The notes under the pieces are model-generated. The model had not been told where the DNA came from and did not search any database. It saw nothing but the letters and a program-made list of their open reading frames with translations. From Williamsia sp. DF01-3 (GTDB lineage: Bacteria; Actinomycetota; Actinomycetes; Mycobacteriales; Mycobacteriaceae), in assembly GCF_023051145.1 (NCBI RefSeq), contig NZ_JALKFS010000005.1, forward strand, positions 1,736,001 to 1,800,000: a stretch of DNA of 64,000 nt, read 5' to 3'. The translations under genes were made by a program, and so were the position numbers. Every line of letters begins with the position of its first letter. The first letter of the stretch is position 1. Below are positions 33,292 to 47,012 of this stretch, piece after piece.

Positions 33292-33318
33292 TCACCACTT
33301 CGCTGGCACGCTGTAGTG

Positions 33319-33738
33319 ATGGCAAATGTTGATGAACTACACGGCGAAGCGCACGTCCAGCGTTATCTCGAGACGAATGGGGAAGAAGGCTTCCACTGGA
33401 AGGGGACCGAGATCCTCATCCTGTTCACCAAGGGTCGAAAGTCCGGCGACGAGCGACGACATGCCTTGATCTTCCGCACCTGGGAAGACAATGGCTATCT
33501 GGTTGTGGCATCAAAGGGTGGGGCAGACGCGCCGCCTGCCTGGTTCCTCAATTTGCAGGACAACCCCGAAGCGGAGATCCAGGTCAAAGACGAGCGGATT
33601 CCCGTTCGGGCGCGAGTGGCCACCGACGAGGAGAAGCCGGCGATGTGGTCCCGCATGGTCGAGGTGTGGCCAGACTACGACGATTACCAGACCAAGACGT
33701 CGCGTCCTATCCCCGTGGTGGTTCTCGAGCGCGTCTGA
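33319..33738 (+). CDS. Deazaflavin (F420)-dependent nitroreductase-family protein
   Basis: A 139-aa Ddn-like split-barrel reductase. The family text is clear: LILFTKGRKSG, RHALIFRTWEDNGYLVVASKGGA, PAWFLNLQDNPEAEIQ and the ending RPIPVVVLERV. Ddn relatives use reduced F420 to reduce quinones or nitro compounds and are typical of Mycobacteriales. ATG 33319 is taken; GTG 33316 immediately before is equally possible. It follows the SNF2 gene by 27 bases. Confidence 0.88.
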   Translation: MANVDELHGEAHVQRYLETNGEEGFHWKGTEILILFTKGRKSGDERRHALIFRTWEDNGYLVVASKGGADAPPAWFLNLQDNPEAEIQVKDERIPVRARVATDEEKPAMWSRMVEVWPDYDDYQTKTSRPIPVVVLERV

Positions 33739-33763: not shown

Positions 33764-34510
33764 TCAGCCCTTGGCGATCAGGCGGCGTTCGCCGGCCCGT
33801 ACCGGGAAGTCGAACCGGTTGTTCTGCGGCGGCAGCGGACACAGGTAGTGATCGGTGAACGTGCAGGGCGGCAGGTAAGCCCGGTTGAAGTCCACCACCA
33901 CGCGGCCGTCCGCATCCGCCGGTTCGACGTCGAGAAATCGGAACCGCTGTGTTTCGCTGCCGTTTGTCGAGTCGGCGAACACGAGTTGAGCGCCCCCGTC
34001 CGGCCTTGCGATGCCCGACAACGTCAGCGCCGCCCCATCCACTGTGACCCGTATGGTCGCGGTGGCCTTGGATCCGACAAACCCGTCGACGTGATCGAAC
34101 GGCAATTCGTCACTGTCGAGTTCGATGGTCCCATCCAGAACCCACGACGGATTCGGGTCAAAAGCGTCGATGCCTGACAGTGCCAGGCGGGTGGGCGCCT
34201 GCGGGTCGAAGACCCGGACTGCCACGTGTCCTGCCCGGGCGAGCACAGCCACCGTCACGTCATCGAATTCCTGCTTTGATCCGGGCTCGAGGGAGGCATC
34301 GGACTCGCCGGGACGGCTGACAACGGCCGTGCCGTCGACGGCGGTCCACGAGCCGGGAAGCGGATTGATGGTCTGCGGTTGATCATCGAGCCAGTACGTG
34401 CCGGTGACCGAAGCCAGACCGTGGGGTGCGGTCGCGGCGACGTCGCGGTCGGCGCGCCAGAGATTCCACTGGTCGAGCCAGTGATCTGTTGTGGTGGCGG
34501 AAGTGGTCAC
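33764..34510 (-). CDS. DUF1684 domain protein at the end of the sulfur/ABC operon
   Basis: A 248-aa soluble protein of the DUF1684 family, recognised by VVDFNRAYLPPCTFTD and YLCPLPPQNNRFDFPV near the C-terminus, with an N-terminal part reading LDQWNLWRADRD. Function is unknown; the conserved Cys residues (CTFTD, LCPLP) and Asn/Arg could form an active site. It follows the fused ATPase gene by 51 bases on the same strand, so it probably shares the operon. The GTG at 34510 has AAAGG upstream. Confidence 0.8.
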   Translation of the reverse strand: MTTSATTTDHWLDQWNLWRADRDVAATAPHGLASVTGTYWLDDQPQTINPLPGSWTAVDGTAVVSRPGESDASLEPGSKQEFDDVTVAVLARAGHVAVRVFDPQAPTRLALSGIDAFDPNPSWVLDGTIELDSDELPFDHVDGFVGSKATATIRVTVDGAALTLSGIARPDGGAQLVFADSTNGSETQRFRFLDVEPADADGRVVVDFNRAYLPPCTFTDHYLCPLPPQNNRFDFPVRAGERRLIAKG

Positions 34511-34561
34511 CGTGATGCCTTTCGGTTCGGGTCGGTATCGCGAGAGTGGACGTTCTGTTGA

Positions 34562-36235
34562 TCAGTGGGTCAGCGAAGCGGTGCGTGCGGCTGCGCGTTT
34601 GCCTGGGATGGCGTCGAGCAGGCGCTGGGTGTACGGGTTCGACGGATGCTGGAATACGTCTGCGACGGAGCCTGATTCGACGATATTGCCCTTCTCGAAC
34701 AAGGACACGGTGTGCGCCACCTGAGCGACGACGGCGAGGTCGTGGGAGATGAACAGATAGGTCAGGCCGAGACGCTCCTGCAGTTCGGCGAGCAGTTCGA
34801 GGATCTGTTCCTGCACCGAGACGTCGAGCGCCGACACGGGTTCGTCGAGGAGTACCACTTCCGGTTCGAGCACCAGGGAACGGGCGATGGCCACACGTTG
34901 GCGTTGGCCACCCGACAACTCGACCGGCAACCGATCGAGGTGGTCGCGGGGCAGTCCCACCTGGTCGAGCAGTTCCGCGGCCTTGTGATGGCGGGAGCGA
35001 CGATCACCGATCCGGAACGACACCAGCGGCTCGATGATGCTGTCGCGCACGGTGAAGCGTGGATCGAGTGAGGCGAACGGATCCTGGTGAACCAGCTGGA
35101 ATCGTCGGCGCAGCGGTCGCAGTTCACGCCAGGAAAGATCGGTGATGTCGGTGCCGTCGAAGCGAACCCGGCCTGATGTCGGCTTCTCCAGGCCCATGGC
35201 CACCCGCAGAGTGGTGGTTTTGCCCGATCCGGACTCTCCGACGAGGGCGTGGGTTCGGCCGGCGGCTACGCGAACGGAGATGTCGTCGAGGGCAGTGAAC
35301 GGCTCGCCCCCGCTGACGGGGAATCGCTTGGTCACCGAGGCGAGTTCGATGACGGGGTTGTCGACCTCGACCTGGTCAGGAGCGACCACAAAGCGGGGTG
35401 TGATGACGCCGCCCTGGGCGAGGGCGGGTGCCGCGGCGATCAGCCGGCGGGTATACGAGTTGTCGGGCTCGACGAGAATGGTTGCCGGCGAACCCTCTTC
35501 GACGATGTGCCCGTGCTGCATGACGATCACCCGGTCGGCACGGTCCGCGGCGACCGCCAGATCGTGGGTGATGATCAACAGGGCGGTGCCGGTGTCGCGT
35601 ACGAGTGACTCGAGGTGGTCGAGGATGCGGGCCTGCACGGTGACGTCGAGCGCGCTGGTCGGTTCATCGGCGATGATCAGGTCGGGTTTGCCCGCGAGCG
35701 CGATCGCGATCAGAACACGCTGACGTTGACCTCCGGAGAGTTCGTGTGGGTAGCGGCGGATGCGCTCGGCGGGGTCGTCGAGGCCCGCCTTGGTGAGAGC
35801 GTCGATCACCTCGTCACCGATCTCGGCTCCGCGGACACCACGCAGTTTCACGGCTTCGGCGACCTGGACCCCGATGCGCTGAGTGGGGTTCAGCCCCACC
35901 ATCGGGTCCTGCGGGATGAGTCCGACCACCGAACCACGCAGTCGCCGAACCACTTTCTCCTTGGCGCCGGCGATCTCCACACCGCCGACCTTGATCGATC
36001 CAGACGTCACTCGCCCGTTGGCGGGCAACAACCCGATGATCGCGTTCGCGGTGGTGGTCTTGCCGGAACCCGACTCGCCGACGACCGCAACCACCTCGCC
36101 GGGATTCACCTGCAGATCCAGGCCGTGGACGGCGGGCGTCACCTGCCGGTTCCGTCGGTAACCGATGTTCAGGCCACGGATGTCGACGATCGGGACGCGA
36201 GCATCAGATGCCGACTTGCTGAGGTTGGTGGTCAT
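34562..36235 (-). CDS. Peptide/opine-type ABC transporter, fused double ATPase (DppD-DppF)
   Basis: A 557-aa protein with two complete nucleotide-binding domains. Domain 1 (residues ~15-260) has VVGESGSGKTTTANAI, ELSGGQRQRVLIAIAL and LIIADEPTSALDVT. Domain 2 (~300-545) has ALVGESGSGKTTTLRV, ELSGGQRQRVAIARSL and VVLLDEPVSALDVSVQ, and ends with the oligopeptide-type HPSNPYTQRLLDAIPG. The ATG at 36235 overlaps the permease stop by four bases. It drives the importer formed with the two permeases and receptor upstream. Confidence 0.95.
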   Translation of the reverse strand: MTTNLSKSASDARVPIVDIRGLNIGYRRNRQVTPAVHGLDLQVNPGEVVAVVGESGSGKTTTANAIIGLLPANGRVTSGSIKVGGVEIAGAKEKVVRRLRGSVVGLIPQDPMVGLNPTQRIGVQVAEAVKLRGVRGAEIGDEVIDALTKAGLDDPAERIRRYPHELSGGQRQRVLIAIALAGKPDLIIADEPTSALDVTVQARILDHLESLVRDTGTALLIITHDLAVAADRADRVIVMQHGHIVEEGSPATILVEPDNSYTRRLIAAAPALAQGGVITPRFVVAPDQVEVDNPVIELASVTKRFPVSGGEPFTALDDISVRVAAGRTHALVGESGSGKTTTLRVAMGLEKPTSGRVRFDGTDITDLSWRELRPLRRRFQLVHQDPFASLDPRFTVRDSIIEPLVSFRIGDRRSRHHKAAELLDQVGLPRDHLDRLPVELSGGQRQRVAIARSLVLEPEVVLLDEPVSALDVSVQEQILELLAELQERLGLTYLFISHDLAVVAQVAHTVSLFEKGNIVESGSVADVFQHPSNPYTQRLLDAIPGKRAAARTASLTH

Positions 36236-37230
36236 CGTTCGAGTTCCTGAAGGGTCTTGGAGATGTGGTTGAGCGAAAGCACTGTGATCGCGATGAACAG
36301 ACCAGGCATCAGCGAGACCCACGGGGCGGTGACAAGGAAGTTGCGTCCGGTGGAGACGAGGGTGCCCCACTCGGCCTGCGGTGGTGCGGCACCGAAGCCG
36401 AGGAAGCTCAGTGCGGCGATCGCGATGATCGCAACACCGAAGTCGAGGACGGCGAGAACCGCGACCGGACCCCACGAGTTGGGCAAGATGTGCCGCAACA
36501 GGACCCGCGTCCACGAGGCGCCACCCGCACGGGCCGCCTCCACGTAGGGGAGGGTCTTGACCCTCAGCACCTCGGCGCGGGTCGTCCGGGCGAAACCGGG
36601 GACGATGCCGATACCCACGGCGATGGCGACGGGGACGGTGCCGAAGCCGAGCGCGGTGACGATCGCCAAGGCCAGCAGCAGACCGGGAATGGCCAGCAGC
36701 ACATCGACGAACCGCATGATCACCGAATCGGTGACGCCGCTGAAGAACCCCGAGATCACGCCGAGCGTGAGGCCGGCCACGACTGCGATGGCCAGGGCGA
36801 TCAGAGCCGCTTCGATCGTCAAGGTCGATCCGTACAGTGTCCGCGTCCACAGGTCGCGGCCCATCTCGTCGGTACCGAACAGGTGCGTTGTGCTCGGCGC
36901 CAACAGTCGGTCGGCGGGGGCGGTGCGGTAGGGGTCGTAGGAAGTGAACCAGGACGGAAAGAACGCCGACACCCCGACAAACGCGATGAACAGCACGGTG
37001 AGGACGAATAGAGGCCGCCTGACAGCTTTCGCAGTGGTTGCCCGCAACGGACCCCAGCGTCCTCCGGGTTCGGTTGCGCCCGGCGGAGTCAGCGAATGGT
37101 CGGGTTTCGCGACAGGCCGCTCCACCGGCAGGTCGATCCCCAGTGCACTGGCACTCGAGCTGGATGTGTCGGAGACGGAGCGAAGCGGAGCTCGACCATT
37201 CTCGATGCGGTCTTTCAGCGTCTCGGTCAT
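36232..37230 (-). CDS. Peptide/opine-type ABC permease (DppC-like)
   Basis: A 332-aa permease with a ~70-residue cytoplasmic N-terminus rich in Ser and Pro, then six transmembrane helices. LFGTDEMGRDLWTRTLYGS is the DppC hallmark, and TLPYVEAARAGGASWTRVLLRHILPN is split by the EAA coupling loop (YVEAARAGGA). It starts one base before the previous permease stop region ends (gap one base) and overlaps the ATPase gene by four bases. Partner of the DppB-like subunit. Confidence 0.93.
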   Translation of the reverse strand: MTETLKDRIENGRAPLRSVSDTSSSSASALGIDLPVERPVAKPDHSLTPPGATEPGGRWGPLRATTAKAVRRPLFVLTVLFIAFVGVSAFFPSWFTSYDPYRTAPADRLLAPSTTHLFGTDEMGRDLWTRTLYGSTLTIEAALIALAIAVVAGLTLGVISGFFSGVTDSVIMRFVDVLLAIPGLLLALAIVTALGFGTVPVAIAVGIGIVPGFARTTRAEVLRVKTLPYVEAARAGGASWTRVLLRHILPNSWGPVAVLAVLDFGVAIIAIAALSFLGFGAAPPQAEWGTLVSTGRNFLVTAPWVSLMPGLFIAITVLSLNHISKTLQELER

Positions 37231-37231
37231 G

Positions 37232-38200
37232 TCAGCTCACCTTTGTCTTCGTGCGGACTTTCGTCGTGTGGGCGATGCGCGGATCCAGCAGCGGGTAGAG
37301 GAGATCGACGATCAGGTTGACCAGGACGAACGCGGCGGCGGCCAGCGTCACGATGGCCAGTACCACCGGGATGTCCTGGGCGAGAACCGCTTCCTGTGCC
37401 AGCTTGCCGATCCCGTTGCGGTTGAACACGGTCTCGGTCACGATCGCGCTCGTCACCGTCACCCCGACGAGCAGACCGAAGATGGTCAGCGCCGGCAGGG
37501 CGGCGTTGCGGAACGCATGCTTGCGCTGGACGGCACCGCGGGACAGGCCCTTGGCCCTGGCGGTCACGATGTACTGCTCGCTCAGCGTTTCGTTGAAACT
37601 CCGGGTCAGCACCTGCGCCAACGCCGCCGTGGTGGGGATGGCCATCGTGATCACCGGCAAGATGAGGTACTCGGCACCACCTGATCCCTGCGAGGGCAAC
37701 CAGCCGAGGTTGAATGCGAAGACCTGGATGAGGATCAGGGCGATCAGGAAGGACGGAACCGCAACGCCGAACGCGGGCAAGCGGTCCAGCAGGATCCGGA
37801 CGGGCTTGAACTGGACGAAGGCGGCGAGGTACGCGAGGGCGGTCCCGGCGATGACTGCGAGTAGTCCGGCCAGCACACTGAGGGTCAGCGTGCCGCCGAG
37901 GCGTTCGGCAATCAGGTCGGATACCGGTGCCTGCTTGGAGATCGACAGGCCCCATTCTCCGCGGACGGCGCCGCTCAGCAGTGAGAAGTATTGGTCGATC
38001 ATGGATTTGTCGAGTCCGTACTTGGACTTGACCGCCAGCAACTCTTCCGGCGACATGGTGTCCGGGTCGAGTCCGGCCGCGCCCAGCTGGATGCCGACGG
38101 CATCGCTGGGCAGGAGATAGAGGATCACGAACGTCAACGTGAATGCTGCCCACAACACCACAACCGCCTGGGCGATTCGGCCTGCTATGTACCTGCGCAT
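37232..38200 (-). CDS. Peptide/opine-type ABC permease (DppB-like)
   Basis: A 322-aa membrane subunit starting MRRYIAGRIAQAVVVLWAAF, with six helices, a large extracytoplasmic loop after helix 1 (SKYGLDKSMIDQYFSLLSG), and the coupling loop QYIVTARAKGLSRGAVQRKH. The ATG at 38200 is the natural DppB start. It is separated from the receptor gene by a 12-bp-stem hairpin, which can lower permease expression relative to receptor. Confidence 0.93.
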   Translation of the reverse strand: MRRYIAGRIAQAVVVLWAAFTLTFVILYLLPSDAVGIQLGAAGLDPDTMSPEELLAVKSKYGLDKSMIDQYFSLLSGAVRGEWGLSISKQAPVSDLIAERLGGTLTLSVLAGLLAVIAGTALAYLAAFVQFKPVRILLDRLPAFGVAVPSFLIALILIQVFAFNLGWLPSQGSGGAEYLILPVITMAIPTTAALAQVLTRSFNETLSEQYIVTARAKGLSRGAVQRKHAFRNAALPALTIFGLLVGVTVTSAIVTETVFNRNGIGKLAQEAVLAQDIPVVLAIVTLAAAAFVLVNLIVDLLYPLLDPRIAHTTKVRTKTKVS

Positions 38201-38222
38201 GGCTGCGGTTCCTTCCTGTGGC

Positions 38223-38256
38223 GGTTGGCCCCGGTGGTCTTCACCCGGGGCCAACC
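38223..38256 (-). terminator. Intra-operon hairpin between receptor and permease genes
   Basis: GGTTGGCCCCGG (38223-38234) pairs with CCGGGGCCAACC (38245-38256), 10-nt loop. It follows the receptor stop by 27 bases on the minus strand and lacks a T-run, so it is more likely a partial terminator or mRNA stabiliser, as often found downstream of ABC receptor genes. Confidence 0.6.
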
Positions 38257-38283
38257 GGTCGAGCTCGGTTGATGCGTGGTCGA

Positions 38284-39966
38284 TTACGGCTGAAGGAACG
38301 TGTCGTTGAGTGCCAAGAAGCTCTCGGATGTGAACCGGAAGCCGTTGACCTTGTTGCTGACGCCGGCCAACTGCTGGCGTTCGAACAGCGGGAAGCTGAC
38401 ACCCTGATCGATCAGCAGGTTCTGCAGATCGTCGTAGGCCTGTTTGGTCTGGGCCTCGTCGGTGGTCTGCACGGCCTTGGTGAACAACTGCTGGATCTGC
38501 GCCGCCACCTCGGGGGTGGCCGCGTTCTTGGCGATTGCCTTCTGGTTGGCGAGCGCTTCGACCAGGATGAACTGCAGCGCACCGGGATCGGCGCGGGTGA
38601 AGTAGGTTCCGATCAGATCGTAGCCGCCACTCTTGAGTAGACCGATCGACTCGGCCTGAGTGACCACCTTCAACTGAAGGTCGATGCCGACCTGACGCCA
38701 CTGATCCTGCAGGAGCTCGTTACCGGCGGCGAACTGTCCGACGATGGTCAGGGTGAGGGTCAGCTGCTGACCGTTTTTGGACCGGTACTCACTGCCGGCG
38801 GGCTTGGTCCAGCCGGCGGCGTCGAGCAGCTTGCCGGCACCTTCGGGGTCGAAGCCCAGCATGTCGGCTTGTGACTGGAAGAACGGGGTGGTGGTGTCGA
38901 AGGCGCCTTCCACCACCGGGTAGTCGGGTCCGTACACGGTGGCGGCATTGGTCTTGAGGTCGGTCGCCTTGTAGAGGGCTTGGCGGACCTGCGGATCCGC
39001 CAGTGGCTTGCCGGCACTGACGTTGGGGAACAACGTGTTCGAGACACCGGGAAGTGACCGCGACTCGATGTAGCCGCCGGAGTTCTTGATCTGTTCCTGA
39101 TCTTCGACGGTCAGCGGATTGCGGGGCCAGGTGATGTCGACGGCGCCGCTGACGAGGTTGCCGGTGCGGACGCTGTCTTCGGCGACGTAGCTGTACTTGA
39201 CCGCGTCGAGGTACGCCTCGCCGGTGTTCTTGTTGAGGCTCGATCCCCAGGTGTATCCGGCCCTCCGGCTGAGCGAGATGCCCTGGCCGGGGGTGTAGTT
39301 GTCGAGCTTGAACAGACCGGAACCGCTGAACTGGCCGAGGCACCGCTCTTCCGGGGTCTTCTGGAACGACGCCGGCGAGATGAGGGCGAGATTTGTGGTG
39401 GACGTCGCCTGCAAGAAGGATGAGTTCGGCTGGGTGAAGTGGAACTTCACTGTCTGCGGATCGACGACGGTGGTCGATTCGAGTCCCAGGATGTAGCTGG
39501 CGCCGAAGGCAGTGCCGCCGCTGGTCTTGGCCAGGTCGATGAACCCGTCGAAGTTGGTCTTGACCGCTGCGGCGTCCAAGGGTGCTCCATCGGAGAAGGT
39601 CACGCCGTCGCGCAGGGTGAAGGTGTAGTCGAGGCCGTCCGGGCTGATCTCCCACTTGCTGGCCAGCCAGGGCACGATCTCACCTGTGTCCGGGTTCTGG
39701 TCGGTCAACGAGTCCGCGATGTTGCGGATCACCGAACGGTGCTCGATCCAGTAGGTCTGGAACGGGTCGACGCACGTGAAGGTGGGGTTGTCCGGGAAGT
39801 AGGCGATGTCGAGTGTGCCGCCCTTGACGGGATTGGCGGCGTCGCCGCTGGGGCCGGATTCGGCGTTTCCGCCGGCGCTGCACGCGGTCGCGACCAGAGT
39901 CGACATCAGGGCGAGCGCGCCTGCGACCTTCCAGCGGCCGGATCTCGTGCGGGTGTGTTGACGCAT
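38284..39966 (-). CDS. ABC transporter receptor, SBP family 5 lipoprotein
   Basis: A 560-aa extracytoplasmic solute receptor. A basic start, a hydrophobic stretch and the lipobox STLVATAC at residues ~22-29 mark a Sec lipoprotein. The SBP_bac_5 fold (peptide, nickel, opine, glutathione group) is indicated by VIRNIADSLTDQNPDTGEIVP in the first third (split here by RNIADSL), LASKWEISPDGLDYTFTLRD and DPQVRQALYKATD. In context with sulfonate-type monooxygenases, the ligand may be an organosulfur compound; this is inference. A 47-base gap separates it from the SfnB-like gene. Confidence 0.93.
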   Translation of the reverse strand: MRQHTRTRSGRWKVAGALALMSTLVATACSAGGNAESGPSGDAANPVKGGTLDIAYFPDNPTFTCVDPFQTYWIEHRSVIRNIADSLTDQNPDTGEIVPWLASKWEISPDGLDYTFTLRDGVTFSDGAPLDAAAVKTNFDGFIDLAKTSGGTAFGASYILGLESTTVVDPQTVKFHFTQPNSSFLQATSTTNLALISPASFQKTPEERCLGQFSGSGLFKLDNYTPGQGISLSRRAGYTWGSSLNKNTGEAYLDAVKYSYVAEDSVRTGNLVSGAVDITWPRNPLTVEDQEQIKNSGGYIESRSLPGVSNTLFPNVSAGKPLADPQVRQALYKATDLKTNAATVYGPDYPVVEGAFDTTTPFFQSQADMLGFDPEGAGKLLDAAGWTKPAGSEYRSKNGQQLTLTLTIVGQFAAGNELLQDQWRQVGIDLQLKVVTQAESIGLLKSGGYDLIGTYFTRADPGALQFILVEALANQKAIAKNAATPEVAAQIQQLFTKAVQTTDEAQTKQAYDDLQNLLIDQGVSFPLFERQQLAGVSNKVNGFRFTSESFLALNDTFLQP

Positions 39967-40013
39967 TGTCGTGGTTCTACTTTCGGGTGAGTTGATGAAG
40001 CGGTCGAGCAGGA

Positions 40014-41186
40014 TCAGGCGCGCAGGAGCGCGCGACCGGCGGCCAGCAGGGCGGTGTCTTCCTGGGGCGGATGCACGCGAACACAGAGCACATCGCGCAG
40101 GTGTCGTTCGAGCGGATTGTGCCGGGTCAGTGCGGCGTTGCCGAGTGCGGCGACCGCGGTCTGGACCGCGGCGATCACCGACCGGGCGATCTGGACCTTG
40201 ACCAGTGACAGGCCTGCCGCCGCGGCGGGATCGTCGGCGGCGACGCGCAGAAGTGTTCCGTAGAGCAGGGTTTCGGCCTGCACTATCTGGGCGTCGATCT
40301 CACCGGCGATGGCCTGGATGCGTTCGGTCTCGGCAATGGGACGGCCCAACGCGGTCGGTACGCGTTCACGGGCGTATGTCACGAATGCCGTACGGGCCGC
40401 CCGCGCAACTCCGACGTACAGCGCGGGATGGCCGAAACCCGTTGGGCCGGTGGCCACTGCGGGGTCGCGGTAGACGCCATCGGTCTTCGGGATCTCGAGG
40501 AAGTTCTCCTCGCCGACCTCGACACCTGCGTAGCTGACGTCATGGGTGTTGGAGGCGCGCAGCCCCAGGTGATCCCAGGTCTGGTGCCAGGTGATCCCGG
40601 CGGAGTCGGCGGGAACGATCACGTGCCCGACCCTCGGCTCCTCTTCATCGGTGATCGCCCAGACCAGGTGGTACGCCAGTGCCGTCCCTCCGGTGGCAAA
40701 GGTCTTGCGACCGGTGAGGGTCCAACCGTTCGCCGTCCGCCGCGCGATGGTCTTGGGCAGACCGCCGCGGGCCGGTGCGCCCAGTTCCGGCTCGGCGCGG
40801 ATCACGTTGACCGGGGCCGGTCCCTGCACCGACTGCCGGAGCAGGTTGTCGTAGAGGTCGGCGGGCCACGAGTTCGTGGCCGCCTGCATCTGGTGGATCG
40901 CCAGGTTGTTGGCGGCGATGAGTGCCACAGACGGGTCGCCTTCACCGAGCGCGGAGAGGATCTGCACAACCTCGAACGGTCCGGCCTCGGGACCGCCGAA
41001 TCGTGCCGCCACGGTGGCCGTGAGGTACCCGCCCCGATGGGCAGCAGCCAGGCCGGCCACCGGGATATCTCCACTTCGGTCGTATTGCTCAGCGGTGGAG
41101 GCGACTTCGGCGGTCAGCGCCTTGAGGCCCGACGGTGAGAGGTCGGGTGTTGGGAGCGTCACGCCCCGCACCGAGGTGACGGTCAT
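40014..41186 (-). CDS. SfnB/DszC-like flavin-dependent oxygenase (acyl-CoA dehydrogenase fold)
   Basis: A 390-aa flavoprotein of the acyl-CoA dehydrogenase superfamily, in the monooxygenase branch that includes SfnB and DszC used for sulfur release from organosulfur compounds. Visible blocks: GDPSVALIAANNLAIHQMQ, TLTGRKTFATGG, WDHLGLRASNTHDVSY, and a C-terminal HNPLERHLRDVL. The catalytic Glu of true dehydrogenases is not obvious. Start and the LLM stop overlap by four bases, so it is co-translated with the SsuD-like gene. It probably uses reduced FMN from an unlinked reductase. Confidence 0.85.
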   Translation of the reverse strand: MTVTSVRGVTLPTPDLSPSGLKALTAEVASTAEQYDRSGDIPVAGLAAAHRGGYLTATVAARFGGPEAGPFEVVQILSALGEGDPSVALIAANNLAIHQMQAATNSWPADLYDNLLRQSVQGPAPVNVIRAEPELGAPARGGLPKTIARRTANGWTLTGRKTFATGGTALAYHLVWAITDEEEPRVGHVIVPADSAGITWHQTWDHLGLRASNTHDVSYAGVEVGEENFLEIPKTDGVYRDPAVATGPTGFGHPALYVGVARAARTAFVTYARERVPTALGRPIAETERIQAIAGEIDAQIVQAETLLYGTLLRVAADDPAAAAGLSLVKVQIARSVIAAVQTAVAALGNAALTRHNPLERHLRDVLCVRVHPPQEDTALLAAGRALLRA

Positions 41187-42379
41187 GCCTGTCCGGCCGT
41201 CGCGAAGGCGCCGAGGTGATCGGACTGCAGGGTGCCGCGCTTGCCGGTCGCCTCGCGGTGGGCGAGTTCCTGACGGACCAGCGGCACCACATAACGGCCG
41301 TAGTCGATCGCGTCATTGAGGGTGTCGTATCCACGGATGGAGACCAGATCGGCGCCCAGGTCGATGTAGTCGAGGATGGCGGCCGCCACCGTCTCGGCGC
41401 TGCCGACCAGAGCCGTGGACGCGCCCGCGCCGTTGACGGCGGCTGCGGTCCGGGTCCACAGCGCTCGGTCGTAGATGTCTTTACGGTTCGCGAAGTCCAG
41501 TGCGCGCTGCGATCCGACGTTCTGCGGGGTGTTGCCGGCGATGGTCTTGTACACAGGGTTCTTCGAGAAGTTGGCCTCGATGCGGTCGACGTAGTCGTGG
41601 GCCTTGGCCCAGGCGAGATCGTCGGTGCGGTCGATGATGGGACGGAACGTGACCCAGATGCGCGGCCGGTCTGTGCGGCCGGACTCGGCGGCGATGCGGT
41701 GCACCCGCTCGATCTGACTCTTGATGTCCGCCAGCGGTTCTCCCCAGAAGCTGAAGATGTCGGCCTTGCGTCCGCCGATCTCGAAAGCGGCGTCGGACTG
41801 TCCGCCGATCGAGATCGGGATCTGGGCGCCGTAGGGGGCGAAGCCGGGACCGAAGTTGTCGAACTTGTAGTGGGTTCCACTGTGGGAGAACGGTTCTGTC
41901 TTGGTCCACGAGTCGCGCAGGATGTCGACGAACTCGTCGGTGCGGGTGTAGCGCTGCTCCTTGGTGAGGTAGTCACCCTGGCGGGCCTGCTCGGTGTCGT
42001 TGCCACCGGAGATCAGGTGGACCAGCGCGCGACCTTCGGTCAGCTGGTCGAGGGTAGCCAGCTGCTGCGCAGCCACCGTCGGGAACACGGTGTTGGGGCG
42101 CAGGGCGACGATCGGTTTGATCGTGTCGCTGAGCTGGCCTACGGCCGACGCCATCACGAACGAGTCGGCGGTGTTGGACCCGTACGGCAGCAGCGTCATG
42201 TCGAAGCCACCGTCCTCGAGGGACCGGACGTAGCGACGGAAGAACGGAAGGTCGATGCCACGAGACGGGATCGGGTTGAGCTCGGTGGACGGGTTCAGGT
42301 GCGTGAGGCTGATGAACTCGACCTTCGATGCGGCACTGGCCGGCACCGGCAACGACTCCTGGGACGGATCGGCGGTCAT
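41183..42379 (-). CDS. SsuD-like FMNH2-dependent alkanesulfonate monooxygenase family protein
   Basis: A 398-aa luciferase-like (LLM) TIM-barrel flavin monooxygenase. Family text includes VALRPNTVFPTVAAQQLATL, GRALVHLISGGNDTEQARQG, and QIPISIGGQSDAAFEIGGRKAD. SsuD and relatives cleave C-S bonds of sulfonates to sulfite using FMNH2 and oxygen. It is the first gene of the minus-strand operon with SfnB-like, ABC and DUF1684 genes. AGGAAGGA lies upstream of the ATG at 42379. Confidence 0.88.
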   Translation of the reverse strand: MTADPSQESLPVPASAASKVEFISLTHLNPSTELNPIPSRGIDLPFFRRYVRSLEDGGFDMTLLPYGSNTADSFVMASAVGQLSDTIKPIVALRPNTVFPTVAAQQLATLDQLTEGRALVHLISGGNDTEQARQGDYLTKEQRYTRTDEFVDILRDSWTKTEPFSHSGTHYKFDNFGPGFAPYGAQIPISIGGQSDAAFEIGGRKADIFSFWGEPLADIKSQIERVHRIAAESGRTDRPRIWVTFRPIIDRTDDLAWAKAHDYVDRIEANFSKNPVYKTIAGNTPQNVGSQRALDFANRKDIYDRALWTRTAAAVNGAGASTALVGSAETVAAAILDYIDLGADLVSIRGYDTLNDAIDYGRYVVPLVRQELAHREATGKRGTLQSDHLGAFATAGQA

Positions 42380-42709
42380 GTGGGGGGGTCCTTCCTGACG
42401 TGTCTGTGGCGAGCAGGACCGAAAGACCGGGCCTGGTTCGGAAATGGATGCTAGGGGCGTTCGGACCCCTGGACCAGGGTTGAGATCACCGATTCCGATT
42501 CGTATTGCCGATCGGAATCAATTGGTTGTACTGATCTCATCTGTGCAGGTCAGAGCATTCGCCGATGCCATCAGATAGCCCTACATCGGGCCGATGCGCC
42601 AGGGTTTTACGCGCTGCGAATCAAACTGCGCATCGTCGTCGCCGATAGGGGATTCTGTAGTCCATACCCAGATATCTCAGGCCAGGACTTTGCGGGAACA
42701 GGTGAGTGT
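42380..42709. promoter_or_regulatory. 330-bp divergent control region of the sulfur locus
   Basis: No gene is seen. It separates the SsuD-like operon from the LysR-sulfurtransferase operon and carries a perfect LysR-type palindrome at 42491-42519 and a second short palindrome CCCTGG-A-CCAGGG near 42464-42476. Confidence 0.6.
42491..42519. promoter_or_regulatory. LysR-type operator palindrome
   Basis: GATTCCGAT and ATCGGAATC form a perfect 9+9 inverted repeat with an 11-bp spacer, the classical geometry of LysR-family recognition sites. It lies about 110 bp from the SsuD-like start and about 190 bp from the LysR start. Confidence 0.7.
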
Positions 42710-42712
42710 GTG

Positions 42713-43610
42713 ATGGCGGATCCGTTGGACTTGGTGCATTTGCGCACCCTTGTCGCGATAGCCGAAACAGGGGGCTTTCGACGCGCGGCAGATTCTCTCC
42801 ATCTGAGTCAGCCGACGGTGAGCCAGCACGTCCGACTGCTCGAGAAGCGACTGAAGCAGTCCCTGGTGGTCAAGGACGGCCGCGGGTCCCGGTTCACCGC
42901 AGCCGGGGGAGCGCCTGGTCCTGGAGGCCCGGAAGTTGCTTGCGGCGCAAGACGAGGTGCTGCAACGGTTCTCGATGGCTGTACCGGACAAGCTCACCAT
43001 CGGTTCCACCGAACACGCCGCGGATGGTCTGCTGCCTGAACTGCTGACAGCGCTACGTGGCGCATACCCGGATGTCTGGTTGCAGTTCCGCATCGAGCGG
43101 TCCACCTCGCTGGCCGACTCGGTCGGCAAGGGCGCGATCGATCTCGCCGTGGTGCTGGGCGGCAACGCCGAGCCGATCGGCACCGAAGTCGGAGCGCTCG
43201 CGCTCCGGTGGGTGGCGGCGACGGGTTGGGACATCACTGAGGTCGACGGCTCGATCCCGTTGGTGGCCTTCGAAGAACCATGTGGACTGCGGCGCCGCGC
43301 GCTCGCCCAGCTCGACAACCTCGGCTACGCGGTGACGGTCAGTGCCGAGTCCGGGAATCTCGACGGGGTTCTCGCCGCCGCGCGTGCCGGTCTCGGAATC
43401 GCCCTGTTACCGTTTTCGGGCCCGGTTCCCGAAGGCCTCGTGGAGGTTGAAGCGTTGCCGGACATGGGCGACATCGACGTCCGGCTCGTCGCCCGGCGTG
43501 GCATCGACACCGATGTGGAGCAGGCTGCCGTCGAAGCGGTCACCGCGCACTACCGGACGATTGCCGACAAGGCCGGCGACGCCGGAACACACCTACAAGG
43601 AGTTGCCTGA
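42713..43610 (+). pseudogene. LysR-family regulator with a 1-bp frameshift
   Basis: The N-terminal winged helix is intact (LRTLVAIAETGGFRRAA, SLHLSQPTVSQHVRLLEKRL). At the GGGGG run 42905-42909 the frame is lost; deleting one G gives AGERLVLEARKLLAAQ and continues into an intact co-inducer domain (KLTIGSTEHAADGLLPELL, GLGIALLPF). The repaired protein would be about 298 aa, normal for the family. It diverges from the SsuD-like operon and is followed, with a 1-base overlap, by a sulfurtransferase, so it is the likely sulfur-source regulator. ATG 42713 or GTG 42710 is the start. Confidence 0.85.
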
Positions 43611-44470
43611 TGACCTCGCGCGACGAAATCCTGATCACCACAACCGAATTGGCGTCGCTGATTGCCGGCGACGCCCCGGTGACAGTGCTCGACGTCCGTT
43701 GGCGACTCGACCGTCCGGACGGCCGCGACGACTACGAGACGGGGCACATCCCCGGCGCGGTGTACGTCGACCTCGAGACGGAGCTGTCCGATCATTCGGT
43801 GACCGGCCGCGGCCGCCACCCCTTGCCCAGCGGTGACGTCTTGCAGACGGCCGCTCGCCGGTGGGGATTGCGTGACGACGTTCCTGTGGTGGTCTACGAC
43901 GACTGGAATCGTGCCGGGTCGGCCCGGGCGTGGTGGGTACTGAGAGCTGCCGGCATCACAGGCGTACGCATCCTCGACGGCGGATTGAGTGCGTGGGTGG
44001 CCGCCGGTGAGGAGCTGTCGAAGGGTGCTGAGTCACCGGCCGCCGGCGACGTCACGCTGGCCCATACCGATCTCCACAGCGGGGCCCTGGCCACCCTGAC
44101 CGCCGATGAAGTCGCCACGTTCACCGATTCGGGTGTTCTGGTGGACGCCCGCGCACCCGAACGGTTCCGCGGAGAGGTCGAACCCGTCGATCCGGTCGCC
44201 GGTCACATCCCCGGCGCCGGGAACGCGCCGAGCACCGCGACCCTGGGTGACGACGGAACCTTCCGTGACGCAGATGAATTGCGTGAGCTGTTCGCCTCCG
44301 CCGGTGCTGATGGTTCCGCGCCGGTTGGTGTCTACTGCGGCTCGGGAGTCACAGCGGCCGTCGACCTGGTCGCGCTGAAGGTCGCAGGCGTGGACGCGGC
44401 GCTGTTCCCGGGTTCGTGGTCGCAGTGGAGTGCTGACCCCGCCAACCCGGTCGCCACCGGGCCTGCCTGA
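43610..44470 (+). CDS. sseA: Two-domain rhodanese (thiosulfate/3-mercaptopyruvate sulfurtransferase)
   Basis: A 286-aa cytoplasmic sulfurtransferase. The N-terminal rhodanese domain (TVLDVRWRLDRPDGRDDYE, GHIPGAVYVDLE) is the inactive copy, with VVYDDWNRAG where the active Cys would be. The C-terminal domain carries the active-site loop VYCGSGVTAAV with the catalytic Cys near residue 243. It moves sulfane sulfur between thiosulfate or mercaptopyruvate and acceptors. Its ATG overlaps the LysR stop (TGATG), placing it in the sulfur locus. Confidence 0.92.
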   Translation: MTSRDEILITTTELASLIAGDAPVTVLDVRWRLDRPDGRDDYETGHIPGAVYVDLETELSDHSVTGRGRHPLPSGDVLQTAARRWGLRDDVPVVVYDDWNRAGSARAWWVLRAAGITGVRILDGGLSAWVAAGEELSKGAESPAAGDVTLAHTDLHSGALATLTADEVATFTDSGVLVDARAPERFRGEVEPVDPVAGHIPGAGNAPSTATLGDDGTFRDADELRELFASAGADGSAPVGVYCGSGVTAAVDLVALKVAGVDAALFPGSWSQWSADPANPVATGPA

Positions 44471-44499: not shown

Positions 44500-45852
44500 T
44501 CAGACCGTTTTGCCGGGGTTGAACAGCCCCGTCGGGTCGAGTGCCCGACGGATGGTCCGTTGTAGTTCGACACCGTCGGGCCCCAGCTCCCGTTCGAGCC
44601 ATCGCCGCTTGAGTACACCGACGCCGTGTTCGCCGGTGATGGTTCCGCCCAAAGCCAGTGCGGTACCAAAGATCTCGTCGGCAGCGGCGACGGCACGGTC
44701 ATACGCATCCGGGTCATCGCGGTCCACGACGATGATGGGGTGCAGGTTACCGTCGCCGGCGTGGCCGAACGTGTAAATGGCGGTGCGGTGGCGCGTGGCG
44801 ATCTCGGCGACCGCCCGAATCGCGTCGGCAATGCGGGTACGAGGTACCGCAATGTCTTCGATGAGCGCTCGGCCGTGGCGTTCCAGCGCAGGTAACGCCG
44901 CCCGGCGAATCGCCAGCAGCTCGTCGGAGACCTGCGGGTCGTCGCCTACGCTGACTCGAGAGCTGAACTGCCCGAACACTTCTTGCACGATGCGCGCCTC
45001 GGTGTGAGCTCCGAACCCGTCGGTCTGCGCGACCACAAAAGGGCCCGCGGCATCCGAGGGAAGACCGAGGAAGTCGCGGCTCTGCCGCAGCGACGCCTCG
45101 TCGAGCAGCTCCATGATCGAGGGACGAACACGCGCGGCCAGGACTGCAGTGGTGGCCGCCGCTGCCTGCTCGACATCGTCGAAGTATGCAGCGATGGTGA
45201 CCGTGTCGATGGGGGTCGGCTGCAGGCGGACCGTCGCCGAGACGATCACCCCGAGCGTTCCTTCCGAACCAGTGAACAGACTGGTGAGGTCGAGGCCTGC
45301 AACACCTTTGGCAGTGCGACGGCCGGTGTGGATCAACCGGCCATCGGCCAGCACAACGCTCAGACCCAAGACCGAATCACCGGTCACGCCGTATTTGACG
45401 CATCGGAGACCGCCTGCGTTGGTGGCGATGTTGCCGCCGATGGTGGAGATCGAGGCGCTGGCCGGGTCGGGGGCGTAACGCAATCCGTATCGACCCGCTT
45501 CGGCGTCCAATGCGGCCGTGATGACACCCGGTTCCACCACTGCGAGTTCGTCGGCGGGCGAGATATCGGTGATGCGGTTCAGGCCGCTGACGTCGAGGAC
45601 AAGTGAGCCCGATCCGGCACTGACGCCCCCGGCCAAACCTGTTCCGGCGCCCCGGATCACCACCGACAAGTCGGTGTCCGCCGCGTAGATCACCGCGTTC
45701 TGGACATCGTCGACGGTCTTCGCCTGCACCAGTACTTCTGGTGCTCCGACCGGGTTGAATCCCGAACGGTCGATGCGGTACTCGTCAGGGATCTGCGCGC
45801 CAGTGCGGACGGTACCGGTCAGCGATTGTTCCCACAGGGCAAAGGAGGTCAC
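44500..45852 (-). CDS. FAD-linked oxidase, GlcD/D-lactate dehydrogenase type
   Basis: A 450-aa flavoprotein with the PCMH-type FAD domain (VVIRGAGTGLAGG near residue 65, STIGGNIATNAGGLRCVKYG near 137, FTGSEGTLGVIVSATVRL near 190) and the C-terminal FAD-oxidase cap ending in YTFGHAGDGNLHPIIVVD and TGEHGVGVLKR. It oxidises a 2-hydroxyacid such as glycolate or D-lactate. No Fe-S partner (GlcF) is adjacent, so it is probably a single-subunit enzyme. The GTG start has no strong ribosome site and is less certain. Confidence 0.88.
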   Translation of the reverse strand: MTSFALWEQSLTGTVRTGAQIPDEYRIDRSGFNPVGAPEVLVQAKTVDDVQNAVIYAADTDLSVVIRGAGTGLAGGVSAGSGSLVLDVSGLNRITDISPADELAVVEPGVITAALDAEAGRYGLRYAPDPASASISTIGGNIATNAGGLRCVKYGVTGDSVLGLSVVLADGRLIHTGRRTAKGVAGLDLTSLFTGSEGTLGVIVSATVRLQPTPIDTVTIAAYFDDVEQAAAATTAVLAARVRPSIMELLDEASLRQSRDFLGLPSDAAGPFVVAQTDGFGAHTEARIVQEVFGQFSSRVSVGDDPQVSDELLAIRRAALPALERHGRALIEDIAVPRTRIADAIRAVAEIATRHRTAIYTFGHAGDGNLHPIIVVDRDDPDAYDRAVAAADEIFGTALALGGTITGEHGVGVLKRRWLERELGPDGVELQRTIRRALDPTGLFNPGKTV

Positions 45853-45992: not shown

Positions 45993-47012
45993 ATGTCGAG
46001 ATACGTGATCGTCGGAGCCGGGGCAGTCGGAGCCAGCTTCGCTGCCGCCTTGAGTGACCGCGCCGATGTCGTGGTGGTGGCCCGAGGCACGAACCTCGAC
46101 CATCTGCGCGACAACCCGCTGACCTTCCGCACCTCTGCGGGCACCCGAAGTGTTCGACTCGACACCGTCGCGATCGACGAACTGCAGTTGCGCAGCGGTG
46201 ATGTGCTGCTGCTGGCCGTCAAGACCCAGCACGTGGGCGACGTCGCGGAAACTCTGGCGTGGAAGCCCGTTCACTCACCGGCCGGTGAGGTGGTCGGATC
46301 GGCCGCGGAGACGCTGCCGGTGGTGACCTTGCAGAACGGTCTCGACGCCGAGCGAGCCGTGGCGCGATGGTTCGCGCACATCATCGGTGCCACGGTCCTG
46401 ATCGCGGCGCGCTACACCGAGGTCGGCGAAGTGAGGGTCGGGGGCAGGCCCAGCCTGGGCGGCGTTCACCTGGGGGAGCCCTATCGCTCCACCGACATCG
46501 GTGCCGACGCCGCTCGGGGGTTCGCCGCAGATCTGCGGGCGGTGAACATCGACGTCTCGGAGACCGCCGACATCACCAAGATCAAGGCAACCAAGATTCT
46601 CCACAGTGTGAAGAACGGCCTCGAGGTGCTGGCGGGTGACGAGTCCGATCGGGTCCGGATCGGGGCAGCACTCGAGGCAGAGGCGCGCAGGGTGCTCACC
46701 GCAGCGGGAATCCAGTACGGAGCCACCCGCGACCTGGTCATCAACGCCGAACAGACCAGCTTCGATCCCGACATCGACGTGGTCGCGGGGCAGCAGTCCA
46801 CCTGGCAGAGTTTCGCGCGCGGTGCGGGCTCGCACGAGGTGGACCACCTCAACGGCGAGATTGCACTGCTCGCCCGATTGCACGGCGTGGACGCTCCCCT
46901 GAACACCAGATTGCAGGCGCTGCTGGGTACGGCATCGGAGCGAGGCGGTGGAACCGATCTGGCGGGTATCGACTTCCTGGTCGAACTCGCGGCGGCGTCG
47001 CCCGCACGCTGA
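45993..47012 (+). CDS. Ketopantoate reductase (PanE/ApbA) family protein
   Basis: A 339-aa NADPH-dependent reductase. The N-terminal Rossmann motif is YVIVGAGAVGASFAAAL, followed by LLLAVKTQHV; the catalytic Lys is expected in TKIKATKILHSVKNGLEV and the C-terminal helical domain has HEVDHLNGEIALLARLHGV with the substrate Glu. Housekeeping PanE makes pantoate for CoA; the adjacent oxidase genes suggest either PanE or a paralogue acting on another 2-oxoacid. It is slightly longer than the typical ~300 aa. Confidence 0.82.
   Translation: MSRYVIVGAGAVGASFAAALSDRADVVVVARGTNLDHLRDNPLTFRTSAGTRSVRLDTVAIDELQLRSGDVLLLAVKTQHVGDVAETLAWKPVHSPAGEVVGSAAETLPVVTLQNGLDAERAVARWFAHIIGATVLIAARYTEVGEVRVGGRPSLGGVHLGEPYRSTDIGADAARGFAADLRAVNIDVSETADITKIKATKILHSVKNGLEVLAGDESDRVRIGAALEAEARRVLTAAGIQYGATRDLVINAEQTSFDPDIDVVAGQQSTWQSFARGAGSHEVDHLNGEIALLARLHGVDAPLNTRLQALLGTASERGGGTDLAGIDFLVELAAASPAR

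What the first reader, a model, noticed from the sequence alone, without database searches (positions are those of the whole stretch)
33764..44470. Candidate organosulfur-scavenging locus with its own peptide-type ABC importer
One minus-strand run joins an SsuD-like FMNH2 monooxygenase, an SfnB/DszC-like flavoprotein (4-bp overlap), a family 5 receptor, two DppBC permeases, a fused DppDF ATPase and a DUF1684 protein. A LysR gene and a rhodanese diverge from it. Classical Ssu systems use an SsuABC importer; here a peptide/opine/glutathione-type importer takes that place and DUF1684 is added. The combination suggests uptake and oxidative desulfurisation of a bulkier organosulfur compound (sulfonated peptide, sulfone or thioether), with rhodanese handling released sulfur. 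The substrate and the DUF1684 role are undescribed to my knowledge. No flavin reductase is in the locus.
Basis: partly seen in the sequence, partly recalled or inferred. Interest (0 to 1): 0.75.

Follow-up and report, generated by a model that had tools for sequence, protein, structure and literature searches.

The report
Widespread uncharacterised organosulfur scavenging gene cluster
This Williamsia gene cluster pairs a peptide-type importer with two oxygen-using flavin enzymes and sulfur-handling helpers, recurs in many soil actinobacteria and on rhizobial plasmids, and probably frees sulfur from a still unknown organic compound that is unlikely to be an ordinary sulfonate.

Summary
The LysR frame is broken in this assembly. 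LLM–ACAD–SBP–permease–permease–fused ATPase is a conserved unit: 63 of 80 named loci collected by ACAD similarity carry a whole core; none of 20 control regions reaches the threshold for any member. Some relatives add a flavin reductase (annotated MsuE on four rhizobial plasmids) and a BisC-type S/N-oxide reductase. A sulfur role is well supported. The 'SsuD/SfnB' labels are not: scores fall far below curated cut-offs, better SsuD-, SfnG- and SfnB-type genes lie elsewhere in the genome, and the LLM lacks both arginines that bind the sulfonate in MsuD. A thioether, sulfoxide or sulfone fits better. The idea is not wholly new: the receptor is TIGR04028-like, and a similar monooxygenase/peptide-importer run is induced on benzothiophene in Gordonia terrae (PMC3868597). 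DUF1684 is accessory (17 of 80). Substrate unknown. New variant of a known kind.

The parts
41183..42379 (-). LLM: luciferase-like FMNH2 monooxygenase (SsuD superfamily, not SsuD proper)
   Evidence: PF00296 211 bits; TIGR03565 190 bits vs cut-off 518; W212 kept; MsuD R225 falls on T244, R296 on V315 (profile alignment) or G317 (MAFFT)
40014..41186 (-). ACAD: acyl-CoA-dehydrogenase-fold flavoprotein, probable group D monooxygenase; 4-bp overlap with LLM
   Evidence: Pfam Acyl-CoA_dh_N/M/1/2; TIGR04022 87 bits vs cut-off 431; nearest PDB chains 5gj7/5z8t; His372 invariant in 14 sequences
38284..39966 (-). SBP: family 5 solute receptor
   Evidence: PF00496 227 bits; best NCBIfam TIGR04028 288 bits vs cut-off 468.5
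37232..38200 (-). permease B
   Evidence: PF00528 and PF19300; start ATG
36232..37230 (-). permease C
   Evidence: PF00528
34562..36235 (-). fused ATPase (DppD-DppF type)
   Evidence: two ABC_tran domains and oligo_HPY; start ATG
33764..34510 (-). DUF1684 protein with Cx7C motif (accessory)
   Evidence: PF07920 115 bits; Cx7C in 16 of 18 aligned; model pLDDT 87.9 matches only solved DUF1684 proteins with confidence
42710..43610 (+). LysR regulator, reading frame broken in this assembly; intact in relatives
   Evidence: HTH_1 at 42710-43039 and LysR_substrate at 42936-43610 in different frames; two relatives intact
42491..42519 (.). 9-bp inverted repeat with 11-nt spacer between LysR and LLM; candidate LysR operator
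   Evidence: identical or one change in three close relatives, core partly kept in two more
43610..44470 (+). tandem rhodanese, 3-mercaptopyruvate sulfurtransferase type
   Evidence: PF00581; PRK11493 165 bits vs cut-off 250; CGSGVT loop in 56 of 56 linked homologues of at least 50% identity
44500..45852 (-). GlcD-like FAD oxidase (2-hydroxyacid oxidase family)
   Evidence: FAD_binding_4 and FAD-oxidase_C; TIGR00387 378 bits vs cut-off 568; linked in 49 of 80 loci
45993..47012 (+). ketopantoate-reductase-like protein (KPR)
   Evidence: PF02558 66 bits vs cut-off 22; TIGR00745 93 bits vs cut-off 141; linked in 31 of 80 loci; between ACAD and msuE on two Rhizobium plasmids

Best explanation
A sulfur-scavenging module. 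The family-5 receptor and the nickel/peptide-type permeases with the fused ATPase import a fairly bulky organosulfur compound. The acyl-CoA-dehydrogenase-fold flavoprotein oxygenates the sulfur (thioether to sulfoxide/sulfone, or sulfinate oxidation, as DszC and MsuC do). The luciferase-like monooxygenase then cleaves the C-S bond. Both would use reduced flavin from a reductase encoded elsewhere in this genome. The released sulfur leaves as sulfite or as a thiol/sulfenate; the 3-MST-type rhodanese moves sulfane sulfur on. The GlcD-like oxidase and the ketopantoate-reductase-like enzyme handle the carbon part, probably a 2-hydroxy or 2-oxo acid. LysR controls the divergent promoters; DUF1684 is an accessory, possibly redox, protein. 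Shown: families, linkage, motif states. Inferred: uptake, reactions, induction, substrate class.
For: Core conserved with order and strand: SBP (bits>=100) in 70 of 80 loci, all 70 on the ACAD strand, 62 within 500 nt downstream of ACAD; LLM within 120 nt of ACAD in 58 of 80. RHOD 57, FADox 49, KPR 31, LysR 59 of 80; controls 0 of 20. Four Rhizobium/Agrobacterium plasmids that I opened: SBP-permB-permC-ATPase-LLM(-LLM)-ACAD, then msuE, with KPR between ACAD and msuE in two, and a BisC/molybdopterin reductase upstream in three; the one msuE product scanned passes its model, 255 vs 212.5 bits. BisC in 12 and Flavin_Reduct in 15 of 80. CGSGVT in 56 of 56 linked rhodaneses. Gordonia terrae C-6 genes 13080-13100 (monooxygenase, peptide SBP, three ABC genes) rise 37-59-fold by RNA-seq on benzothiophene versus sulfate (PMC3868597 section 7). 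Gordonia alkanivorans raises an sseA 3-MST gene 2.9-fold on dibenzothiophene (PMC11852219 passage; orthology untested).
Against: No expression or substrate data exist for this locus. Orthology of the G. terrae genes was not tested. Two rhodanese-type proteins fall, not rise, on dibenzothiophene in Rhodococcus qingshengii (PMC8557817 Table 1; orthology untested). The MsuC analogy is weak: an msuC deletion had no significant growth defect in Acinetobacter (PMC13352529 passages). No flavin reductase in the window. 17 of 80 loci lack a complete core, 11 of them on stretches of at least 20.5 kb, and in 17 of 80 the receptor is a distant one (under 35% identity or short match), so the importer is not strictly co-inherited. 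17 of 80 have none of RHOD, FADox, KPR (16 without the coverage filter), 8 of them full-length. The LLM lacks the sulfonate-binding arginines, so its reaction cannot be copied from SsuD. The LysR frame is broken in this assembly.
Confidence: 0.62

Rival explanations
1. A classical sulfonate system: LLM works as SsuD on a bulky sulfonate (such as a sulfonated peptide) and only the importer has been exchanged.
For: Nearest solved relatives are MsuD and SsuD; best NCBIfam hit is the alkanesulfonate monooxygenase model; the flavin-stacking Trp is kept, and an Arg (R246) is invariant in 16 sequences two residues after the lost one and might substitute.
Against: R225 and R296 of MsuD, each needed for activity (PMC8234197 passages), are not Arg here; 83 of 84 homologues with a recognisable loop have no Arg in it, while the genome's own SsuD-like protein keeps both. 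190 bits vs cut-off 518.
Confidence: 0.14
2. Not a sulfur locus: import and flavin-dependent oxidation of a peptide- or amine-like carbon/nitrogen source.
For: LLM and ACAD-fold monooxygenases also act on nitrogen compounds (RutA, nitrososynthase among the PDB hits); family-5 receptors usually carry peptides, opines or metal complexes (recalled).
Against: Linkage to a 3-MST-type rhodanese in Actinomycetota, to msuE on rhizobial plasmids, and to BisC-type reductases in both phyla.
Confidence: 0.13
3. A metallophore or opine uptake locus (NikA/CntA-like receptor) with unrelated oxidoreductases beside it.
For: The receptor also scores against NikA and CntA models; KPR-type enzymes resemble some opine dehydrogenases (recalled).
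Against: TIGR04028 beats NikA (288 vs 198 bits) and all are below cut-off; the LLM/ACAD pair and rhodanese travel with the importer.
Confidence: 0.06
4. A detoxification locus that oxidises thiol conjugates of toxic electrophiles and exports the products.
For: A pair of fused ABC proteins, exporter-like by length, lies beside the core in 23-24 of 80 loci.
Against: That pair is absent from the window locus; a dedicated importer argues for nutrient uptake; the pair's Pfam domains were not scanned here.
Confidence: 0.05

Closest known systems
TIGR04028 / TIGR04027 (KPN_01854 / KPN_01858) gene set of NCBIfam
   Same: Family-5 receptor, two permeases, ATPase and an LLM in one run (Erwinia plasmid); window SBP scores best against TIGR04028; an LLM whose best model is TIGR04027 (94 bits vs 413 for the member scanned) has homologues near 17 of 80 module copies.
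   Different: Window SBP is below the TIGR04028 cut-off and no such LLM was found beside the window core; the Erwinia stretch viewed shows no ACAD, KPR or rhodanese. Both models are hypothetical equivalogs.
Gordonia terrae C-6 GTC6_13080-13100 (PMC3868597)
   Same: FMNH2-dependent monooxygenase, peptide-type receptor, then ABC genes under consecutive tags, induced on benzothiophene versus sulfate; same order as ACAD-SBP-perm-perm-ATPase.
   Different: Not treated as a unit by its authors in section 7, which I read; sequence orthology not tested; other linked genes unknown.
SfnG-MsuC-MsuD/SsuD pathway (dimethyl sulfone to sulfite)
   Same: Logic of an ACAD-fold sulfur oxygenase beside LLM C-S cleaving enzymes powered by a shared flavin reductase (PMC13352529 passages).
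   Different: Different importer; window LLM and ACAD far below the SfnG, SfnB, SsuD and DszC cut-offs; sulfonate-binding arginines missing.
CmoO/CmoJ S-alkylcysteine salvage (PMC10863075)
   Same: Two flavoenzymes oxidise then cleave a thioether to give a reduced sulfur product.
   Different: CmoJ is described as a homologue of YxeK and DszA; the window LLM scores 63 bits against the NtaA/DmoA subfamily cut-off of 280, a subfamily I recall as theirs. No acetyltransferase was seen among the proteins scanned in the locus.

Membership tests
SsuD/MsuD alkanesulfonate monooxygenase | Luciferase-like fold family (PF00296) | tested here: met
   211 bits, cut-off 27.9
SsuD/MsuD alkanesulfonate monooxygenase | Curated equivalog score (TIGR03565) | tested here: not met
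   190 bits vs 518; the genome's own SsuD-like protein scores 425, also below cut-off but far closer
SsuD/MsuD alkanesulfonate monooxygenase | Sulfonate-binding residues W195, R225, R296 and RGGA loop | tested here: not met
   W kept, both Arg and the loop changed whichever way the 2-residue insertion is placed; own-genome SsuD-like control keeps them; 83 of 84 homologues with a recognisable loop lack Arg in it
Ssu system | SsuABC-type importer | tested here: not met
   SBP_bac_5, BPD_transp_1 x2, fused ABC_tran
Ssu system | Dedicated flavin reductase in the locus | tested here: not met
   No PF01613 or PF03358 match inside the window; 5 and 9 elsewhere in the genome. Flavin_Reduct in 15 of 80 relatives; msuE annotated on four rhizobial plasmids opened, one checked
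SfnB (TIGR04022) | Curated equivalog score | tested here: not met
   87 bits vs 431; another protein in the genome scores 479
SfnG (TIGR04021) | Curated equivalog score | tested here: not met
   114 bits vs 383; another protein in the genome scores 622
DszC | Curated equivalog score (NF043015) | tested here: not met
   31 bits vs 850
Peptide/nickel-type ABC importer | Family-5 receptor, two BPD permeases, ATPases with oligo_HPY | tested here: met
TIGR04028 receptor | Curated hypoth_equivalog score | tested here: not met
   288 vs 468.5, though best of 10 NCBIfam matches
3-mercaptopyruvate sulfurtransferase | Active-site loop CGSGVT (motif assignment recalled) | tested here: met
   Window protein and 56 of 56 linked homologues of at least 50% identity
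3-mercaptopyruvate sulfurtransferase | Curated equivalog score PRK11493 | tested here: not met
   165 vs 250, best of three matches
CmoJ/DszA-type LLM | NtaA/DmoA subfamily score (TIGR03860) | tested here: not met
   63 vs 280
DUF1684 | PF07920 score and fold | tested here: met
   115 vs 25 bits; Foldseek E 4e-10 to 4dlh

The most novel reading that the evidence does not exclude
The module removes sulfur from S-substituted 2-hydroxy or 2-oxo acids. ACAD and LLM dealkylate an imported thioether of the 3-mercaptolactate/mercaptopyruvate kind (an SsuD-clade counterpart of CmoO/CmoJ), the Cx7C DUF1684 protein or cell thiols reduce the sulfenate where present, the GlcD-like oxidase and the KPR-like enzyme interconvert 3-mercaptolactate and 3-mercaptopyruvate, and the dedicated 3-MST-type rhodanese takes the sulfur off. 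That would be an undescribed route in which sulfur leaves as sulfane sulfur, not sulfite.
Probability: 0.12. Interest if true: 0.75.

Novelty: new variant of a known kind. Interest (0 to 1): 0.5.

Why it matters
Most soil sulfur is organic, and the known bacterial routes (Ssu, Tau, Sfn/Msu, Dsz, Cmo) cover few of the compounds. A module found in Nocardia, Frankia, Actinoplanes, Microbacterium and on rhizobial plasmids, usually with an importer of its own and with an LLM that has lost the sulfonate pocket, points to a natural sulfur source not yet named. Its defined gene set and a receptor that can be screened for ligands make that testable.

Tried and rejected
SsuD, SfnB, SfnG and DszC identity: rejected on curated cut-offs, own-genome paralogues and the binding-site comparison. 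DUF1684 as the key new part: reduced, because only 17 of 80 linked loci have it, although all nine Nocardia loci of the 80 do and in the nine genus genomes it is present and absent together with ACAD (six of nine for both). First DUF1684 model was poor (pLDDT 56); the second is good (87.9) but matches with confidence only DUF1684 structures, so the fold gives no function. ACAD catalytic residues: alignment to 5gj7 is ambiguous by one position, so no claim beyond an invariant His. Paper searches for 5GJ7/5Z8T found none; for KPN_01854/01858 and TIGR04022/04027/04028 one hit, known from the listing only and not opened; DUF1684 appears in one paper. In the listings of four searches for this gene combination and in the passages that I read from some of those papers I saw no description of the unit; most subscription papers are not in that library. 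Promoter/terminator scan at chance level. G. terrae C-6 genes could not be found by name; instead 59 genomes of the genus of Gordonia sp. ABSL1-1 were searched with the SBP: 29 match, and of 30 loci fetched 13 have a distant LLM or ACAD homologue (21–27% identity) within about 1.5 kb. The control count was doubted because it was zero everywhere; a recheck by tblastn showed the control DNA was read properly and gives only weak hits. The controls are 20 stretches at positions I chose, 400 kb in all, so a background of up to roughly one in seven regions is not excluded for a family.
Full report
What is there. The window lies in a 5.59-Mb genome (contig C5, 1736001–1800000); its closest named relatives are Williamsia muralis genomes. 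On the minus strand run LLM (41183–42379), ACAD (40014–41186, 4-bp overlap), a family-5 receptor, two permeases, a fused ATPase and DUF1684; on the plus strand LysR and a tandem rhodanese.

Is it a unit? Counting homologues at 35% identity or more over at least 60% of the query, of 80: LLM 75, permB 68, permC 67, ATPase 67, SBP 53 (70 at 100 bits or more), LysR 59, rhodanese 57, GlcD-like FAD oxidase 49, KPR 31, DUF1684 17, TIGR04027-like LLM 17, Flavin_Reduct 15, BisC-type 12, the two fused ABC proteins 23 and 24. Twenty arbitrarily placed 20-kb regions from eight genomes with the ACAD (G224 carries only part of the module) gave 0 of 20 for every family. Ten families re-counted at looser limits gave 0 of 20 too. 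A tblastn at E 1e-3 gave 39 weak alignments to the ATPase, exporter pair, LLM, LLM3 and ACAD only. By a looser count 63 of 80 have the complete core, and the SBP is on the ACAD strand in 70 of 70.

Limits of that count. 17 of 80 loci lack a complete core, 11 of them on stretches of at least 20.5 kb, such as four Nocardioides and two Gordonia loci; in 17 of 80 the receptor is only a distant relative, with permease and ATPase identities also lower in most of these. So the LLM–ACAD pair is the firm part and the importer is sometimes another family-5 system. One such distant receptor (L086) scores 338 bits against TIGR04028, more than the window's. 58 of 80 loci are at least 20.5 kb, relatives share ancestry, and the loci were chosen by ACAD similarity. 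The organisms span Nocardia, Frankia, Actinoplanes, Pseudonocardia, Nocardioides, Microbacterium and others, and one Solirubrobacter.

The GlcD-like FAD oxidase (44500–45852) and the KPR-like protein (45993–47012) recur beside the core with the rhodanese: 23 of 80 loci hold all three, a further 24 hold rhodanese and FAD oxidase, and 16 hold none (17 with the coverage filter, 8 of these full-length). On two Rhizobium plasmids KPR sits between ACAD and msuE.

Evidence for sulfur. I opened ten annotated plasmid regions, chosen from the rows; all ten have a family-5 receptor and an LLM. Four of them, of Rhizobium and Agrobacterium, show SBP–permB–permC–ATPase–LLM(–LLM)–ACAD, then KPR in two, then an annotated msuE in all four; a BisC-type or molybdopterin reductase precedes in three. 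The one msuE product I scanned passes its curated model (255 vs 212.5). In the named loci, 12 of 80 hold a homologue of a BisC-type S/N-oxide reductase (the fragment scanned scores 561 bits against a full-length cut-off of 1018). All 56 linked rhodaneses of at least 50% identity carry CGSGVT, a loop I recall as typical of 3-mercaptopyruvate sulfurtransferases; the best NCBIfam match is that family, below cut-off. In print, Gordonia terrae C-6 genes GTC6_13080 (monooxygenase) and 13085–13100 (peptide receptor and ABC genes) rise 37–59-fold by RNA-seq (10–37-fold by RT-qPCR) on benzothiophene versus sulfate (PMC3868597, section 7 read); their identity with this module is untested. Rhodococcus qingshengii raises a ketopantoate reductase on dibenzothiophene but lowers two rhodanese-type proteins (PMC8557817 Table 1, section 6 read); Gordonia alkanivorans raises sseA 2.9-fold (PMC11852219 passages). 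Orthology is untested in both. Pseudomonas putida PP3223, a dipeptide-type receptor, is induced 25–66-fold in the rhizosphere (PMC2375017 passage); that PP_3219–3223 includes an SsuD-like LLM is recalled.

What the enzymes are not. LLM scores 190 bits against an alkanesulfonate-monooxygenase cut-off of 518, and 114 against SfnG (383); ACAD scores 87 against SfnB (431) and 31 against DszC (850). The same genome encodes proteins that pass SfnG (622) and SfnB (479), and an SsuD-like protein at 438 (PRK00719) and 425 (TIGR03565), below its cut-offs but far closer. In MsuD the methanesulfonate is held by W195, R225, R296 and the RGGA loop, and alanine at W195, R225 or R296 left no measurable sulfite release (PMC8234197 passages). 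Aligned to MsuD and SsuD and to the genome's own SsuD-like protein as positive control, the window LLM keeps the Trp (W212) but has T244 at the first Arg position and V315 (profile alignment) or G317 (MAFFT; the loop has a 2-residue insertion) at the second, and no RGGA loop. Of 95 homologues of at least 45% identity in the named loci, 84 had a recognisable loop, 83 of them without Arg and 1 with; 91 of 95 had T/S at the first position with an Arg two residues later. That Arg (R246, invariant in the 16) might form a different anion site, so a sulfonate is unlikely but not excluded.

Mechanism. Uptake by the TIGR04028-like importer; sulfur oxygenation by ACAD; C–S cleavage by LLM; reduced flavin from one of five Flavin_Reduct and nine FMN_red matches elsewhere in the genome; sulfane sulfur handled by the rhodanese; the carbon acid handled by the GlcD-like and KPR-like enzymes. 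Precedents for ACAD-fold and LLM enzymes working in sequence are MsuC and MsuD/SsuD, although an msuC deletion had no significant defect in Acinetobacter (PMC13352529 passages). For oxidation followed by C–S cleavage of a thioether they are CmoO/CmoJ (PMC10863075 abstract and opening text). The rhodanese and the FAD oxidase have weaker relatives in the genome (two at 32–33%; three, the best at 44%).

DUF1684. Sixteen of 18 aligned members keep a Cx7C pair, the motif proposed as a thiol relay in Haloferax HVO_1043 (PMC9426492 passages). The predicted fold matches with confidence solved DUF1684 proteins only, one of them crystallised with mercury (4fj4). It follows the ATPase in the window and in the nine Nocardia loci, and in the nine genus genomes it is present or absent together with ACAD. 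It is an accessory of the Nocardia/Williamsia branch and a few others, role unknown.

Regulation. A 9-bp inverted repeat with an 11-nt spacer (42491–42519) lies in the divergent region; three close relatives keep it (one with a single change) and two more keep part of the core. The shape fits a LysR site (recalled). Generic promoter and terminator scans gave nothing above chance.

Verdict. It is a new variant of a known kind: flavin-monooxygenase desulfurisation with a peptide-type importer, already half-visible in NCBIfam's hypothetical models and in Gordonia expression data. The open and testable question is the substrate.

Noticed in passing
window 42710-43610: LysR reading frame is broken in this assembly; two close relatives have an intact gene. 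Could be a mutation or a sequencing error.
   Followed up: partly
L017 11005-12446: In another Williamsia genome (G003; contig length equals that of W. muralis NBRC 105860, L077) the ACAD gene itself is split over two frames.
   Followed up: no
L074: A record titled Kitasatospora arboriphila matches this Williamsia locus at 98%, and its contig length (756,951) equals a contig of genome G006 in the window's genus; the title is probably wrong.
   Followed up: partly
L020 5317-9007, L021 11935-15784, and 23-24 of 80 named loci: A pair of fused ABC proteins of about 600 aa (exporter-like by length) lies beside the core ATPase in many relatives and is absent from the window locus.
   Followed up: partly
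L086, L090, L096, L101 and others; L155, L226: BisC-type molybdenum S/N-oxide reductase linked to the module in 12 of 80 loci and on Rhizobium plasmids.
   Followed up: partly
L189 8636-12373 (G000:C5 about 5155600-5159400): Separate SsuD-like, SfnG and SfnB cluster in the same genome.
   Followed up: partly
plasmids collection: 186 plasmid records hold an ACAD homologue at E 1e-30 (Rhizobium 66, Sinorhizobium 47, also Klebsiella 5 and Pantoea 5), 95 of them predicted conjugative, so the module or parts of it may travel.
   Followed up: partly
window 33316-33738: F420H2-dependent quinone reductase family protein (PF04075) just past the DUF1684 gene, on the other strand; kept next to it in three close relatives.
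   Followed up: no
L139 11407-17567: The Leucobacter locus has three rhodanese homologues near ACAD and a DUF1684 gene but no LLM match.
   Followed up: no
L086, L101, L102, L108, L115 and others: In 17 of 80 loci the importer beside LLM-ACAD is a distant family-5 system, so importers seem to be exchanged between otherwise similar loci.
   Followed up: partly
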